The position numbers and the translations under genes were made by a program. The notes under the pieces are model-generated. The model saw only the letters and a program-made list of their open reading frames with translations, did no database searches and was not told where the DNA came from. Below, piece after piece: positions 9,452 through 13,287 of a stretch of 64,000 bases of DNA (the first letter of the stretch is position 1; the number at the start of each line of letters is the position of its first letter). This stretch comes from Solimonas fluminis (GTDB lineage Bacteria; Pseudomonadota; Gammaproteobacteria; Nevskiales; Nevskiaceae), in contig NZ_PSNW01000001.1 of NCBI RefSeq assembly GCF_002930645.1, positions 426,600 through 490,599 on the forward strand, written 5' to 3'.

Positions 9452-10072
9452 TCACTTGGTCGGGATGATGCCGCGCTTTTCCAACTCCTTGAGCAGCACC
9501 TCGACTTCCTGCTCCAGCGTCAGCTGGTCGGTGCGCAGGTGGATCTCCGCGTTCTCCGGCGCCTCGTAGGGATCATCGATACCCGTGAAGTTCTTGATCT
9601 CGCCGGCGCGGGCCTTCTTGTACAGGCCCTTGGGGTCGCGCTTCTCGGCCTCGGCCAGCGGCACGTCGACGAACACCTCGATGAACGGCAGGCCGTCCTT
9701 CTCGTGCGTCTCGCGGGCGATCTGGCGGTCGGCGCGGTAGGGGCTGATGAAGCTCGACAGGGCGATCACGCCCACATCCACGAACAGCTTGGCCACCTCG
9801 CCCACGCGGCGGATGTTCTCGGTGCGGTCCGCCGCCGAGAAGCCCAGGTTCTTGTTGATGCCCAGGCGGATGTTGTCGCCGTCCAGGCGGTAGCACAGCG
9901 CACCGCGCGCGGTCAGCGCGTTTTCCAGCGCCACGGCCACGGTGCTCTTGCCGCTGCCGGACAGGCCGGTGAACCACAGGGTGGCACCCTTGTGGCCCAG
10001 CAGCTTGTTGCGGTCTTCGCGGGAAACCTGGCCGTGGTGCCAGTGGACGTTGGTCGCTTTCTGTTCAGTCAT
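9452..10072 (-). CDS. cysC: Adenylyl-sulfate kinase
   Basis: The protein has 206 residues. The P-loop is FTGLSGSGKSTVA and the APS-kinase signature regions LDGDNIRLGINKNLGFS, ENIRRVGEVAKLF and KGLYKKARAGEIKNFTGIDD are all present. It phosphorylates adenylyl sulfate with ATP to give PAPS. It starts 9 nt after the TetR gene, so the two are likely co-transcribed, and it has its own terminator. No cysD or cysN is adjacent. The context points to PAPS supply for the sulfotransferase encoded about 2 kb away rather than to assimilation alone; that link is inferred. Confidence 0.97.
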   Translation of the reverse strand: MTEQKATNVHWHHGQVSREDRNKLLGHKGATLWFTGLSGSGKSTVAVALENALTARGALCYRLDGDNIRLGINKNLGFSAADRTENIRRVGEVAKLFVDVGVIALSSFISPYRADRQIARETHEKDGLPFIEVFVDVPLAEAEKRDPKGLYKKARAGEIKNFTGIDDPYEAPENAEIHLRTDQLTLEQEVEVLLKELEKRGIIPTK

Positions 10073-10081
10073 GTTTCGCTT

Positions 10082-10825
10082 TCACTTGAGGTGGGACCCC
10101 GGCAGGGCGGCGCTGGCGGCGGCCAGGCGCTCCGCGGTCGCAGGGGATACGGGGGCCGAGAAGAGCGCGATTATGCAGTCTTCCAGGTTGCGGATGAATA
10201 GCTCGGTGTCGATCTGCGGGCTGGGCAGGTCGGCCTGCTCCAGCAGGCGGGAGTGGTCGGCCAGTCCGTCGAACAGCAGCACCGTGGCCAGCATGGCGCG
10301 CTGACGCATCAGCGGCGGCGCCAGGTGCGGGGTGGCGGCCCGCAGGGCGGCGGTCAGGCGTTCCACCGGGGCGATCTTCAGGGCCGAGGCGTGGAGCTGG
10401 TGCACGTCCATGGTCAGCGTCGCCACCAGCTGGGCCTGGAAGCGGATGAAGTGATGCCCGCCGTCGGTGTCGAACAGCTTCTCGGCCACCGGATAGACGA
10501 AGGCCCGCACCACCTGCGGCAGCCCCAGGCCGCCCTGGGCCTCGAACTCGTCCAGCAGCTGGTTGCGCCGCGCCGAGACGCCGTGGACATGCTTGTCCAG
10601 GATCGCCTGCAGCAGGCCCTGCTTGCTGCCGAAGTGATAGTGGGTGGCGTTCTTGTTGCGCTGCCCGGCGGCCTTGTTGATGTCGCTCAGCGACACTCCC
10701 TCGATGCCCCGCTCGGCGAACAGGCGCTCCGCGATCGCCACCAGCTTGGCGCGGGTGGCGATGCTCTGCGGGGTGCGCGCCGCCTGGGGGCGGACGCGCA
10801 GGGCGGTGGCCGAGGCGGACTTCAT
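10082..10825 (-). CDS. TetR-family regulator of the sulfotransferase locus
   Basis: The protein has 247 residues. The helix-turn-helix lies at about residues 25-72 (AERLFAERGIEGVSLSDINK followed by HYHFGSKQGLLQAIL). The C-terminal region resembles the TetR_C domains of fatty-acid and phenolic regulators. It is divergent from the DUF1214-sulfotransferase operon and co-directional with cysC. The intervening region holds two identical-geometry sites, AAGG-N6-CCTT, one next to each start. The likeliest reading is one repressor controlling both transcripts and itself. Confidence 0.92.
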   Translation of the reverse strand: MKSASATALRVRPQAARTPQSIATRAKLVAIAERLFAERGIEGVSLSDINKAAGQRNKNATHYHFGSKQGLLQAILDKHVHGVSARRNQLLDEFEAQGGLGLPQVVRAFVYPVAEKLFDTDGGHHFIRFQAQLVATLTMDVHQLHASALKIAPVERLTAALRAATPHLAPPLMRQRAMLATVLLFDGLADHSRLLEQADLPSPQIDTELFIRNLEDCIIALFSAPVSPATAERLAAASAALPGSHLK

Positions 10826-10830
10826 GGTCT

Positions 10831-10944: not shown

Positions 10945-10979
10945 ATCCATGAATCCTGAACGTCACTGAGGAGAAGCCG

Positions 10980-12086
10980 ATGACGGCAGCACAGGATCCC
11001 GCCGGCCCGGTCATCAGCGGCCAGGCCTGGGACGAGTTTTGCGACACCCTCAAGCGCGCCGGACAGCAGATCCTGCGGCCCGAGGCCGCCGCCAGCGAGC
11101 TGGACCGTGCCGAGGGCTGGCGCTACCTGACGCGCCTGCTGCGCATCGGCCTGGAGATGCACCTGGAGTTCGCCGACCCGGACTTCCCGGGCTTCTTCCT
11201 GCCCTCGCACGAGACCGGCAAGATCGGCGCCGACAACCCGGACAACCACTACCTGTTCGCCCGCATCAACGGCCGCAACGAGTACGTGATCCGCGGCGAG
11301 CGCGGCACCGTGCCCTACCTGTCCTTCGGCACGCAGAAGGGCGGGTACGAGACCAACGGGCTGATGGAGCAGACCGGCTTCATCGAGGCCAAGGACCTGC
11401 AGCTCGACGCGGACGGCCGCTTCGAGATCGTGCTGTCGGCCGAGAAGCGCCCGGGCAACTGGCTGCGCATCGAGCCCGAGAGCAACTCGATCGTGGTGCG
11501 GCAGACCTTCAACGACCGCCCCAACGAGCGCGCCGCCACCATGCGCATTTCGCGCCTGGGCGCGGACGCCCAGCCCAGGCCATTGAGCGCCGCGCAGCTG
11601 CAGGCCGGCCTGCGCAACGCCGCCGCCTTCACCGAGGGCACGGCGCGCGTGTTCGCCGACTGGGCGCAGGGCTACCTGCCCCACGTCAACCAGCTGCCTC
11701 CGGCCAACCAGCTGGTCTGCCAGCGCACCGGCGGCGACCCCAACATCTTCTATTACCACTCGGCCTGGGAACTGGACGAGGACCAGGCGCTGGTGATCCA
11801 CCTGCCCCGCATCCCGGAATGCCGCTTCTGGAACCTGCAGATCAACAACTGGTGGATGGAATCGCTGGACTACCGGTACCACCGCATCCACGTGAACAAG
11901 TACAGCGCCCAGCATGACGCCGACGGCGGCGTGACCATCGTGCTGAGCCAGCGCGACCCCGGCCGGGCCAACTGGCTGGAGACCACCGGCCACCGCCGCG
12001 GCACGATGTGCCTGCGCTGGGTCGGCGCCCAGGAACACATCCATCCCGAGACGCGCGTGGTGCGCGTTGCAGACCTCAAGGCCTGA
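10980..12086 (+). CDS. DUF1214-domain protein, first of two
   Basis: The protein has 368 residues. The C-terminal DUF1214 region is clear (FYYHSAWELDEDQALVIHLP, then FWNLQINNWWMESLDY and NKYSAQHDADGGVTIVLSQ). No signal peptide is seen, whereas many DUF1254/DUF1214 proteins are exported. A GAGGAG site precedes the ATG. It opens an operon with a sulfotransferase 4 nt downstream. A clear paralogue is encoded at 14142-15248. The biochemical role of DUF1214 is not established; the conserved Trp/His-rich C-terminal block suggests ligand binding or catalysis on a small hydrophobic molecule. Confidence 0.88.
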   Translation: MTAAQDPAGPVISGQAWDEFCDTLKRAGQQILRPEAAASELDRAEGWRYLTRLLRIGLEMHLEFADPDFPGFFLPSHETGKIGADNPDNHYLFARINGRNEYVIRGERGTVPYLSFGTQKGGYETNGLMEQTGFIEAKDLQLDADGRFEIVLSAEKRPGNWLRIEPESNSIVVRQTFNDRPNERAATMRISRLGADAQPRPLSAAQLQAGLRNAAAFTEGTARVFADWAQGYLPHVNQLPPANQLVCQRTGGDPNIFYYHSAWELDEDQALVIHLPRIPECRFWNLQINNWWMESLDYRYHRIHVNKYSAQHDADGGVTIVLSQRDPGRANWLETTGHRRGTMCLRWVGAQEHIHPETRVVRVADLKA

Positions 12087-12090
12087 TCCC

Positions 12091-13287
12091 ATGACCGCAG
12101 AACTCCGCTTCGACCCGCCGGCACTGCTGGCCGCCGCCACCGGACAGTCCGGTGGCCTCACCGATTTCGGCGACCCCTCCTTCCGCAAGGCCCTGGAGGT
12201 GCTCTGCGACTCGCTGGAACGCGAGGCCAACCTGTCGCCCCTGGGCCGCCAGCTGCTGCACGGCAAGTTCGTGGAGCTGCTGGTCAACCGCCTGCGCATC
12301 GAGCAGTTCTTCAGGCAGCACCCGGAGATCGAAAGCGAGCAGATCCAGGCGCCGATCGTGATCGTGGGCCTGCCGCGCACCGGCACCACGCTGCTGCAGC
12401 GCGTTCTGGCCGCCGACCCGCACCTCTACTCGATGCCCTGGTGGGAATCGCGCTACCCGGTGCCCTTCCCCGGCGAGAGCCTGAAGGAGCCCACGCAGCG
12501 CATCGAACGCGCCCGCGGCGAAGTGGCCGTGATGGTCGAGGCCATGCCCAAGCTGATGTCGATGCACCCGATGGACGCCGACCAGGCCGACGAGGAAGTG
12601 ATGCTGATGGAGCATTCCTTCATGGCGGCCTTCAACGCCTACGTCCATGTGCCGTCCTACATGGACTGGCTGCACTCCATCGACGAGAAGCCGGCCTACG
12701 ACTACCTCAAGCGCGTTCTCAAGTTCCTGCAGTGGCAGAAGCGCCAGCGCGGCATCGTCGCCAGCCGCTGGGTGCTGAAGGCCCCTCACCACCTGCTGCG
12801 CATGCGCCTGCTGCTGCGCGAGTTTCCCGGCGCCAAGGTCATCCAGACGCACCGCGATCCGGTGGACACCATCCCGTCCATCGCCAGCTTCATCCACACC
12901 CTGTGGTGCATCTACGGCGCCAATGCCAGCCCGGTGGACGCCGGCCAGGAGTGGAGCGCGCTGATGGCACGCGCCTTCCACCATACCCAGGACGTGCGCC
13001 GCGAAAAGGACCAGGCCGGCAGCTTCCTCGACGTGCGCTTCATCGACACGGTCAAGCAGCCCTTCGAGGTGGTGAAGGCGATCTACGGTTTCGCCGGCCT
13101 GCCGCTGACCGACGAGGCCGAGAAGTCCATGCAGCGCTGGATGGAGCAGAACCGCCGCGACAGCCGCGCCGCCCACGAGTACAAGGCCGAGGACTTCGGC
13201 CTGTCCGAGGCGCAACTCAAGCGGGACTTCGCCGACTACCGCGCCGCCTACATCGAATCCGCCGCACAGCCCGCGGCCGCCCATTGA
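12091..13287 (+). CDS. PAPS-dependent sulfotransferase
   Basis: The protein has 398 residues. The 5'-phosphosulfate loop is IVIVGLPRTGTTLLQRVLA (about residue 90) and the 3'-phosphate region is VIQTHRDPVDTIPSIAS. These are the two hallmarks of PAPS sulfotransferases of the Sulfotransfer_3 type. It would transfer sulfate from PAPS to a hydroxyl or amine acceptor in the cytoplasm. The start 4 nt after the DUF1214 stop indicates translational coupling. The cysC gene, divergent from this operon, makes the donor. The acceptor is unknown; neighbouring SDR, DUF1214 and EthD genes suggest a lipid or steroid alcohol. Confidence 0.92.
   Translation: MTAELRFDPPALLAAATGQSGGLTDFGDPSFRKALEVLCDSLEREANLSPLGRQLLHGKFVELLVNRLRIEQFFRQHPEIESEQIQAPIVIVGLPRTGTTLLQRVLAADPHLYSMPWWESRYPVPFPGESLKEPTQRIERARGEVAVMVEAMPKLMSMHPMDADQADEEVMLMEHSFMAAFNAYVHVPSYMDWLHSIDEKPAYDYLKRVLKFLQWQKRQRGIVASRWVLKAPHHLLRMRLLLREFPGAKVIQTHRDPVDTIPSIASFIHTLWCIYGANASPVDAGQEWSALMARAFHHTQDVRREKDQAGSFLDVRFIDTVKQPFEVVKAIYGFAGLPLTDEAEKSMQRWMEQNRRDSRAAHEYKAEDFGLSEAQLKRDFADYRAAYIESAAQPAAAH

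What the first reader, a model, noticed from the sequence alone, without database searches (positions are those of the whole stretch)
9452..13287. Dedicated sulfation locus: TetR plus APS kinase divergent from a sulfotransferase operon
cysC is co-directional with and 9 nt from a TetR gene, has its own terminator and has no cysD/N nearby, while the divergent operon encodes a PAPS sulfotransferase. Donor synthesis and transfer therefore appear to be under one regulator. Together with DUF1214, SDR and EthD genes this looks like an undescribed sulfo-conjugation module, perhaps for steroid or lipid alcohols.
Basis: partly seen in the sequence, partly recalled or inferred. Interest (0 to 1): 0.72.

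Follow-up and report, generated by a model that had tools for sequence, protein, structure and literature searches.

The report
TetR-switched sulfate-tagging locus in Solimonas
A Solimonas bacterium keeps its only gene for making the active-sulfate donor beside, and apparently under the same switch as, an operon whose enzymes would attach sulfate to an unknown, probably lipid-like, molecule; a related three-enzyme set sits in what looks like the cholesterol-breakdown cluster of mycobacteria.

Summary
In Solimonas, tetR and cysC (9-nt gap, strong terminator) diverge from a five-gene operon: DUF1214, PAPS-type sulfotransferase (ST), SDR, DUF1214, EthD. New here: (1) cysC is the genome's only APS kinase. 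In many relatives cysC stands beside sat; Solimonas has none there. A CysH with Fe-S cysteines probably lets assimilation bypass PAPS. (2) TAAGG-N6-CCTTA occurs exactly twice in the 4.67-Mb genome, before tetR and before the operon. Homologues of this TetR occur in 8 of 100 genomes; all 8 carry the site just upstream of tetR. In G050, another genus, it also precedes the DUF1214-ST operon, on a different contig from tetR. (3) DUF1214 precedes ST in 36 and SDR follows in 37 of 37 relatives' loci. PAPS-making genes adjoin ST in five layouts: cysC-tetR, in-operon cysC, cysC-sat, cysD-cysNC, and cysC with another TetR-like gene. (4) A homologous trio surrounds the orthologue of M. tuberculosis STF1 in 3 of 3 mycobacterial genomes, beside steroid-type genes. 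So "donor synthesis and transfer under one regulator" is well supported by sequence. The exact cysC-tetR layout was seen in one genus only, the substrate is unknown, and dedicated PAPS supply has precedents (NodPQ-NodH, RaxPQ-RaxST).

The parts
9452..10072 (-). cysC, APS kinase, the only one in the genome
9407..9438 (-). intrinsic terminator after cysC
   Evidence: 14 pairs, T run
10082..10825 (-). tetR, TetR-family regulator (best but far sub-threshold NCBIfam hit PsrA), 9 nt from cysC
10830..10845 (.). operator 1, TAAGG-N6-CCTTA, 4 bp before the tetR start codon
10930..10945 (.). operator 2, TAAGG-N6-CCTTA, 34 bp before the DUF1214 start codon
10882..10907 (.). conserved inverted repeat between the operators, role unknown
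10980..12086 (+). DUF1214 protein A
   Evidence: fold = 6ans
12091..13287 (+). PAPS-type sulfotransferase (Sulfotransfer_3, STF1-like)
13343..14134 (+). SDR oxidoreductase (PRK07890 subfamily)
14142..15248 (+). DUF1214 protein B
15258..15971 (+). EthD-domain protein

Best explanation
A self-contained, TetR-repressed sulfation regulon. The TetR dimer binds two TAAGG-N6-CCTTA operators, silencing its own tetR-cysC unit and the divergent DUF1214-ST-SDR-DUF1214-EthD operon. An unknown hydrophobic ligand (lipid or steroid-like) lifts it. APS made by Sat in the cys pathway is then converted by this CysC, the cell's only APS kinase, to PAPS, which the ST uses to put sulfate on a hydroxyl that the SDR makes or unmasks; DUF1214 and EthD proteins assist in an unknown way. 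Shown by sequence: parts, sole APS kinase, palindromes and their going together with this TetR, recurrent coupling of PAPS genes to the ST. Inferred: binding, repression, ligand, catalysis and substrate.
For: Sole APS kinase. Assimilation can probably run without PAPS: Sat and a CysH with CC...CxxC. cysC stands beside sat in at least 24 of 41 relatives' cysC loci looked at, but own LysR-like gene and sat have no cysC between. Operator: 2 sites in the genome, both here; arms invariant in 4 Solimonas while the spacer of site 1 varies; TetR homologues in 8 of 100 genomes, all 8 with the site just upstream of tetR; among 43 DUF1214 upstream regions the perfect palindrome is in 5, the 4 Solimonas and G050, whose tetR is on another contig; 0 sites in 5 TetR-less relatives. 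Coupling: in-operon cysC in G054; ST-cysC-sat in 5 of 5 Halieaceae loci; cysD-cysNC divergent from DUF1214-ST-SDR in Cupriavidus; cysC divergent from a different TetR-like gene, DUF1214, ST and SDR in G058. CysCs of Solimonas and G054 form a clade (100/98) although their STs do not; holding G054's CysC with that of its ST sister G041 is rejected (p-AU 0.00015). PAPS-site motifs invariant; model matches STF1.
Against: The cysC-tetR layout was seen in one genus only. In 31 of 39 genomes with the ST orthologue cysC was not seen within 15 kb (some contigs are short), so linkage is not required. By name the databases call CysH1 a PAPS reductase (NF002537 over cut-off; TIGR02055 APS_reductase below it; best PDB chain 7lhr so named); my APS reading rests on its cysteine motif. 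CysH2 could also use PAPS, and a weak second sulfotransferase match exists. Site numbers alone are not above the backward control in most genomes (own 2 against 5; G001 2/6, G002 2/2, G003 2/3, G050 4/2, G021 1/7, G009 1/3, G064 7/7); the argument is from place. In G021 the TetR is present but the ST operon lacks the site; G009 and G064 have the TetR without an ST orthologue, so its regulon is not always sulfation. No sigma-70-like promoter was found in 8800-13400.
Confidence: 0.64

Rival explanations
1. cysC is simply the housekeeping APS kinase of assimilation, relocated by chance beside a TetR and a sulfotransferase operon; PAPS feeds CysH1 or the PAPS-reductase-like CysH2.
For: It is the only APS kinase. 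Both CysH proteins are named PAPS reductase by their best database hits; CysH2 aligns best with E. coli PAPS reductase and keeps an ECGL motif.
Against: CysH1 has the Fe-S cysteines that, from recalled knowledge, go with direct use of APS. CysH2 has a shortened C-terminus; a hit of its profile range is the only PF01507 match in G012, which has no APS kinase match, and in G030, which has only a marginal one (E 9e-4) (both genomes incomplete, sequences not read). Shared rare palindrome with the ST operon. Its CysC groups with an in-operon CysC, not with the sat-operon clade.
Confidence: 0.18
2. The two units are neighbours by chance: TetR controls the DUF1214-ST operon, and cysC only rides with tetR.
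For: In G050 TetR has a site before the ST operon, while none of the four sites lies on the contig of its cysC-sat.
Against: APS kinase or full PAPS synthesis genes adjoin the ST in five layouts, Solimonas included.
Confidence: 0.12
3. A statement about substrate, compatible with the best explanation: the module serves breakdown of steroids or similar isoprenoids, and sulfation is a conjugation step for detoxification, solubility or storage.
For: Mycobacterial trio beside thiolases, a Rieske-type oxygenase and a 4-hydroxy-2-oxovalerate aldolase in 3 of 3 genomes (family tests in L232 only); [quoted passage not shown] own genome has a 48% relative of that oxygenase, and such relatives (42% or better) are in 11 of 25 searched genomes with the ST orthologue against 3 of 36 without (p 0.0017, kinship not corrected); thiolase, DUF35-like and FAD genes at 1-3955.
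Against: 14 of those 25 ST genomes lack such an oxygenase, so the substrate need not be a steroid; the own-genome oxygenase is on another contig.
Confidence: 0.4

Closest known systems
Mycobacterial stf1 trio (STF1; Rv3529c-Rv3530c-Rv3531c by my reading of gene order)
   Same: Homologous sulfotransferase (30-31%), SDR (36-41%) and DUF1214-like protein (29-33%) adjacent; ST model closest to 2zq5 STF1
   Different: Gene order DUF-SDR-ST; no match to the window's cysC or TetR in those 17-kb stretches; the mycobacterial DUF1214-like protein has no Pfam match at 0.001; in M. tuberculosis APS kinase is fused as cysNC (PMC3141025)
NodPQ-NodH of Sinorhizobium
   Same: PAPS synthesis and a sulfotransferase devoted to one product (recalled)
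   Different: Substrate there is a lipo-oligosaccharide; seen only as a reference title in PMC4216712 and search listings
RaxP-RaxQ-RaxST of Xanthomonas oryzae
   Same: ATP sulfurylase and APS kinase making PAPS for a sulfotransferase (PMC4216712 passages)
   Different: raxST is in an operon with raxA and raxB (secretion) and is thought to act on a secreted peptide; no DUF1214, SDR or TetR in the passages seen
Olefin-synthase and curacin sulfotransferase domains (4gox, 4gbm)
   Same: Among the next Foldseek hits after STF1 and STF9, interleaved with tyrosylprotein sulfotransferases; a Planktothrix polyketide-synthase stretch is 32% identical over 93% of the ST
   Different: Domains of polyketide synthases; fold match weak (TM 0.33-0.47)
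PsrA-type TetR regulators
   Same: Best NCBIfam hit, over the N-terminal half
   Different: 54.5 bits against a cut-off of 300

Membership tests
APS kinase (CysC) | Pfam/NCBIfam score over cut-off, P-loop and conserved kinase motifs | tested here: met
APS kinase (CysC) | APS kinase activity | not testable with these tools
   needs enzyme assay
PAPS-dependent sulfotransferase (Sulfotransfer_3, STF1-like) | Pfam over cut-off, 5'-PSB (PRTGTT) and 3'-PB (HRDP...S) motifs conserved | tested here: met
   (R96, G98-T100, H254, R255, P257, S263 invariant in 31 sequences; motif names recalled)
PAPS-dependent sulfotransferase (Sulfotransfer_3, STF1-like) | Fold of STF1/STF9 | tested here: met
   TM 0.81/0.88 to 2zq5
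TetR family | TetR_N HTH over cut-off | tested here: met
TetR family | Binds a palindromic operator | tested here: inconclusive
   palindromes and co-distribution found; binding not tested
PsrA (equivalog) | NF053516 cut-off of 300 bits | tested here: not met
   54.5 bits
Mycobacterial stf1 cholesterol-cluster module | ST + SDR + DUF1214-like adjacent | tested here: met
Mycobacterial stf1 cholesterol-cluster module | Lies in a steroid-degradation cluster | tested here: inconclusive
   window has lipid-catabolism-like genes; the 48% oxygenase relative is on another contig
Dedicated sulfation locus (NodPQ-NodH kind) | Donor synthesis and transfer genes together | tested here: met
   here only cysC, with sat elsewhere
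Dedicated sulfation locus (NodPQ-NodH kind) | A sulfated product lost in mutants | not testable with these tools
   needs metabolite analysis

The most novel reading that the evidence does not exclude
Sulfation here is not conjugation but activation: PAPS is spent to turn a stubborn hydroxyl of a lipid or steroid intermediate into a leaving group, so that the alcohol can be eliminated during breakdown, a catabolic counterpart of the olefin-synthase and curacin sulfotransferases. DUF1214 would be the eliminating or binding partner. The homologous trio would do the same in the mycobacterial cholesterol cluster.
Probability: 0.12. Interest if true: 0.88.

Novelty: new variant of a known kind. Interest (0 to 1): 0.6.

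Why it matters
It ties a sulfotransferase family of unknown substrate to its own regulated PAPS supply, gives a concrete operator and inducer assay, and shows that a DUF1214-SDR-ST set, whose mycobacterial version lies in the cholesterol cluster, is a widely kept module. A Solimonas with a single, apparently switchable APS kinase is a clean genetic system in which to find the sulfated product. The absence of cysC from the sat locus, leaving the sulfation-linked copy alone, is a natural experiment separating the sulfation branch from assimilation.

Tried and rejected
Chance neighbourhood: rejected by the two sites both falling in one 154-bp gap and by recurrent layouts. TetR conserved with the ST across the family: rejected, it is rare; in 12 of 37 relatives' loci the genes directly upstream of DUF1214 are instead two clusters that read as histidine kinase and response regulator. 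Oxygenase of the steroid pathway as a strict partner of the ST: not supported, though associated. Fisher test of TetR against site presence (8 of 8 against 0 of 5, p 0.0008) is weak evidence: four genomes are one genus, I chose the 12 genomes, and the own genome comes from a slightly different pattern.

The CysC tree is short (206 columns, 14 open forks), so only the starred groups are leaned on; the Halieaceae link (84/83) is not starred. Two sat-linked rows (L080, L085) fall outside the sat clade. L083 (G048) is a long outlier, dropped, whose pair I named after seeing the trees. Before five divergent rows present were dropped (L077, L078, L082, L093, L105); fused cysNC (L111, L196) were not entered; L076, L084, L092 and L097 never entered because my motif filter or gene caller missed them. 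Sat in L191, L195 and L197 was recognised by reading, not by the script's label; the LysR-like gene likewise. Of 39 ST orthologues, 37 relatives' loci plus the window were examined (G015 not fetched); in L064 the contig ends before DUF1214 could be seen. The structure of DUF1214 gave no function: its only close match is 6ans, uncharacterised. Papers: search listings and passages only; no paper was read whole. An earlier count gave wrong coordinates for the inverted repeat (right: 10882-10907) and says about 15 loci for the two-component pair (directly upstream in 12).
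Full report
What is there. The window lies in a genome of 4.67 Mb of the genus Solimonas (the closest named loci are Solimonas MAG BWSM_106 and strain SE-A11, ST 95% identical). cysC (9452-10072, -) follows tetR (10082-10825, -) after 9 nt and ends at a strong hairpin terminator (9438-9407). After a 154-bp gap the other strand carries DUF1214, sulfotransferase (ST), SDR, a second DUF1214 and EthD, closely spaced, to 15971. The ST keeps its PAPS-binding residues invariant among 31 aligned relatives (motif names recalled), and its model (pLDDT 93) matches M. 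tuberculosis STF1 (2zq5, TM 0.81/0.88) and M. avium STF9 first; curacin and olefin-synthase sulfotransferase domains and tyrosylprotein sulfotransferases follow with much weaker TM-scores.

Sulfur metabolism of this genome. There is one APS kinase match, this gene. ATP sulfurylase is the single-chain Sat. Only two PF01507 matches exist. CysH1 carries the CC...CxxC motif, aligned residue by residue with 7lhr; from recalled knowledge this Fe-S type reduces APS directly. Against this, the databases name it a PAPS reductase: NF002537 is over its cut-off, the APS_reductase model TIGR02055 is below its own, and 7lhr is deposited as a PAPS reductase. CysH2 resembles E. coli PAPS reductase without that motif and with a shortened C-terminus. 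G012 has no APS kinase match and G030 a marginal one (E 9e-4); each has a single PF01507 match, of the profile range of CysH2. So CysH2 may not depend on PAPS, but those genomes are 94% and 87% complete and I did not read the two sequences. PAPS is thus probably, not certainly, dispensable for assimilation here.

Absence of the usual copy. In relatives cysC often stands beside sat: in 16 of 29 cysC loci that I scanned for both genes, and in 8 of 12 more that I fetched, often with a divergent LysR-like gene. In the window's genome the LysR-like gene and sat face each other across 133 bp with no cysC between. The Solimonas CysC does not belong to the sat-operon clade (95/95; two sat-linked rows lie outside it). 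It groups with the CysC inside the G054 ST operon (100/98), and, less firmly, with CysC of Halieaceae ST operons (84/83). The ST of G054, however, is sister to that of G041 and far from Solimonas, and holding the G054 CysC together with that of G041 is rejected (p-AU 0.00015). One CysC lineage has therefore come beside two different ST lineages, by transfer or repeated recruitment.

One regulator. TAAGG-N6-CCTTA occurs at exactly two places in the genome, 10830-10845 before tetR and 10930-10945 before DUF1214; the same pattern read backwards gives 5 places, so it is the place, not the number, that speaks. In the four Solimonas the arms are invariant while the spacer of the first site varies. 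TetR homologues at E <= 1e-20 exist in 8 of 100 genomes, the own one included: the four Solimonas and, at 54-57% identity, G021, G064, G009 and G050. Each of these four has the palindrome upstream of its own tetR. Among 43 DUF1214 upstream regions examined, five have the perfect palindrome: four Solimonas and G050, where tetR lies on another contig. Five relatives without the TetR, one of them (G035) the ST sister of G050, have no 18-bp site within one mismatch. Against: G021 has the TetR but no site before its ST operon; site counts exceed the backward control only in G050 of the eight; G064 has seven sites, one of them before an RND-type transporter gene (by reading); G009 and G064 lack the ST orthologue. 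So this TetR looks like an autoregulated regulator that was recruited to the ST operon in two genera, and in Solimonas to cysC as well.

How conserved. ST relatives at 50% identity or more are in 39 of the 146 genomes searched: 38 of the 58 family members and one of the same order. In the 37 relatives' loci fetched, SDR follows ST in 37 and DUF1214 precedes it in 36 (the other, L064, is cut by a contig end); EthD follows in 19. All 39 genomes have an APS kinase, within 15 kb of ST in 8: four Solimonas, G054 (115 bp between matches), and three genomes of one genus at 13-14 kb. Presence of APS kinase alone is not informative, since most relatives without the ST also have one.

Recurrent coupling to PAPS synthesis. 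Besides Solimonas: DUF1214-ST-cysC-SDR-EthD in G054; ST-cysC-sat in 5 of 5 Halieaceae loci, with DUF1214 in two (sat confirmed by family search in L121, the others by clustering); cysD-cysNC divergent from DUF1214-ST-SDR in Cupriavidus pinatubonensis; and, with a more distant ST (41%), cysC divergent from a different TetR-like gene followed by DUF1214, ST and SDR in G058, another family of the order (TetR and SDR by reading; DUF1214 and ST by Pfam). This recurrence is the best evidence that the coupling is functional.

What it may act on. In three mycobacterial genomes the orthologue of STF1 (75% over a 251-residue stretch) sits in the order DUF1214-like, SDR, ST, beside thiolases, a Rieske-type oxygenase and a 4-hydroxy-2-oxovalerate aldolase (thiolase and aldolase by family search in L232 only; the oxygenase by reading and by gene order). 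[quoted passage not shown] Rv3529c and Rv3530c carry a different mark whose note I did not see. The mycobacterial DUF1214-like protein has no Pfam match at 0.001 but aligns with the window's at 29-33%. The window's genome has a 48% relative of that oxygenase, and the window begins with a lipid-transfer-type thiolase (best model 30 bits under its cut-off), a DUF35-like protein (label recalled) and an FAD dehydrogenase. Relatives of the oxygenase at 42% or better are in 11 of 25 searched genomes with the ST orthologue and in 3 of 36 without (p 0.0017, kinship not corrected). The other 14 ST genomes lack one, so steroid is a lead, not a result. Related sets also occur on sphingomonad plasmids.

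Judgement. Its core idea, donor synthesis and transfer under one regulator, is now backed by two palindromes found nowhere else in the genome, by their going together with this TetR and by repeated coupling in other layouts. The concept is not new (NodPQ-NodH, RaxPQ-RaxST), so I call it a new variant of a known kind. No paper in the held library contains both DUF1214 and sulfotransferase, or both Solimonas and sulfotransferase; of 12 papers holding sulfotransferase, APS kinase, TetR and gene cluster, the 8 listed concern other systems by title.

Noticed in passing
window 57010-57825 and 57859-63999, +: Sulfatase-family protein (PF00884) directly upstream of a large polyketide synthase (ketosynthase, acyltransferase and carrier domains) that reaches the end of the window.
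   Followed up: no
window 1-7764, -: Lipid-transfer-type thiolase, DUF35-like protein, another TetR-like gene, FAD dehydrogenase, PQQ dehydrogenase and DUF1302 protein in a row: a lipid or steroid catabolism-like island.
   Followed up: partly
L037:8072-8725 (-): PAPS-reductase-like CysH2 with shortened C-terminus; a hit of the same profile range is the only PF01507 match in G012 and G030, which have no or only a marginal APS kinase match. Its real substrate is unclear.
   Followed up: partly
L042, L044, L046-L051, L053, L058, L065, L069 (and L041 with cysC-tetR between): What reads as a histidine kinase and a response regulator stand directly upstream of DUF1214-ST in 12 of 37 relatives' loci; in Solimonas G002 cysC-tetR has come between.
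   Followed up: no
L188:5489-5506: A perfect TTAAGG-N6-CCTTAA site upstream of an RND-type transporter gene in G064, a genome with the TetR homologue.
   Followed up: no
window 10882-10907: Near-perfect inverted repeat GATCCTC...GAGGATC between the two operators, largely kept in 4 of 4 Solimonas; hairpin or another binding site.
   Followed up: no
G000:C1:513049-513705: Weak second Sulfotransfer_3 match (E 1e-6), about 73 kb away; the gene as I called it has no Pfam match.
   Followed up: partly
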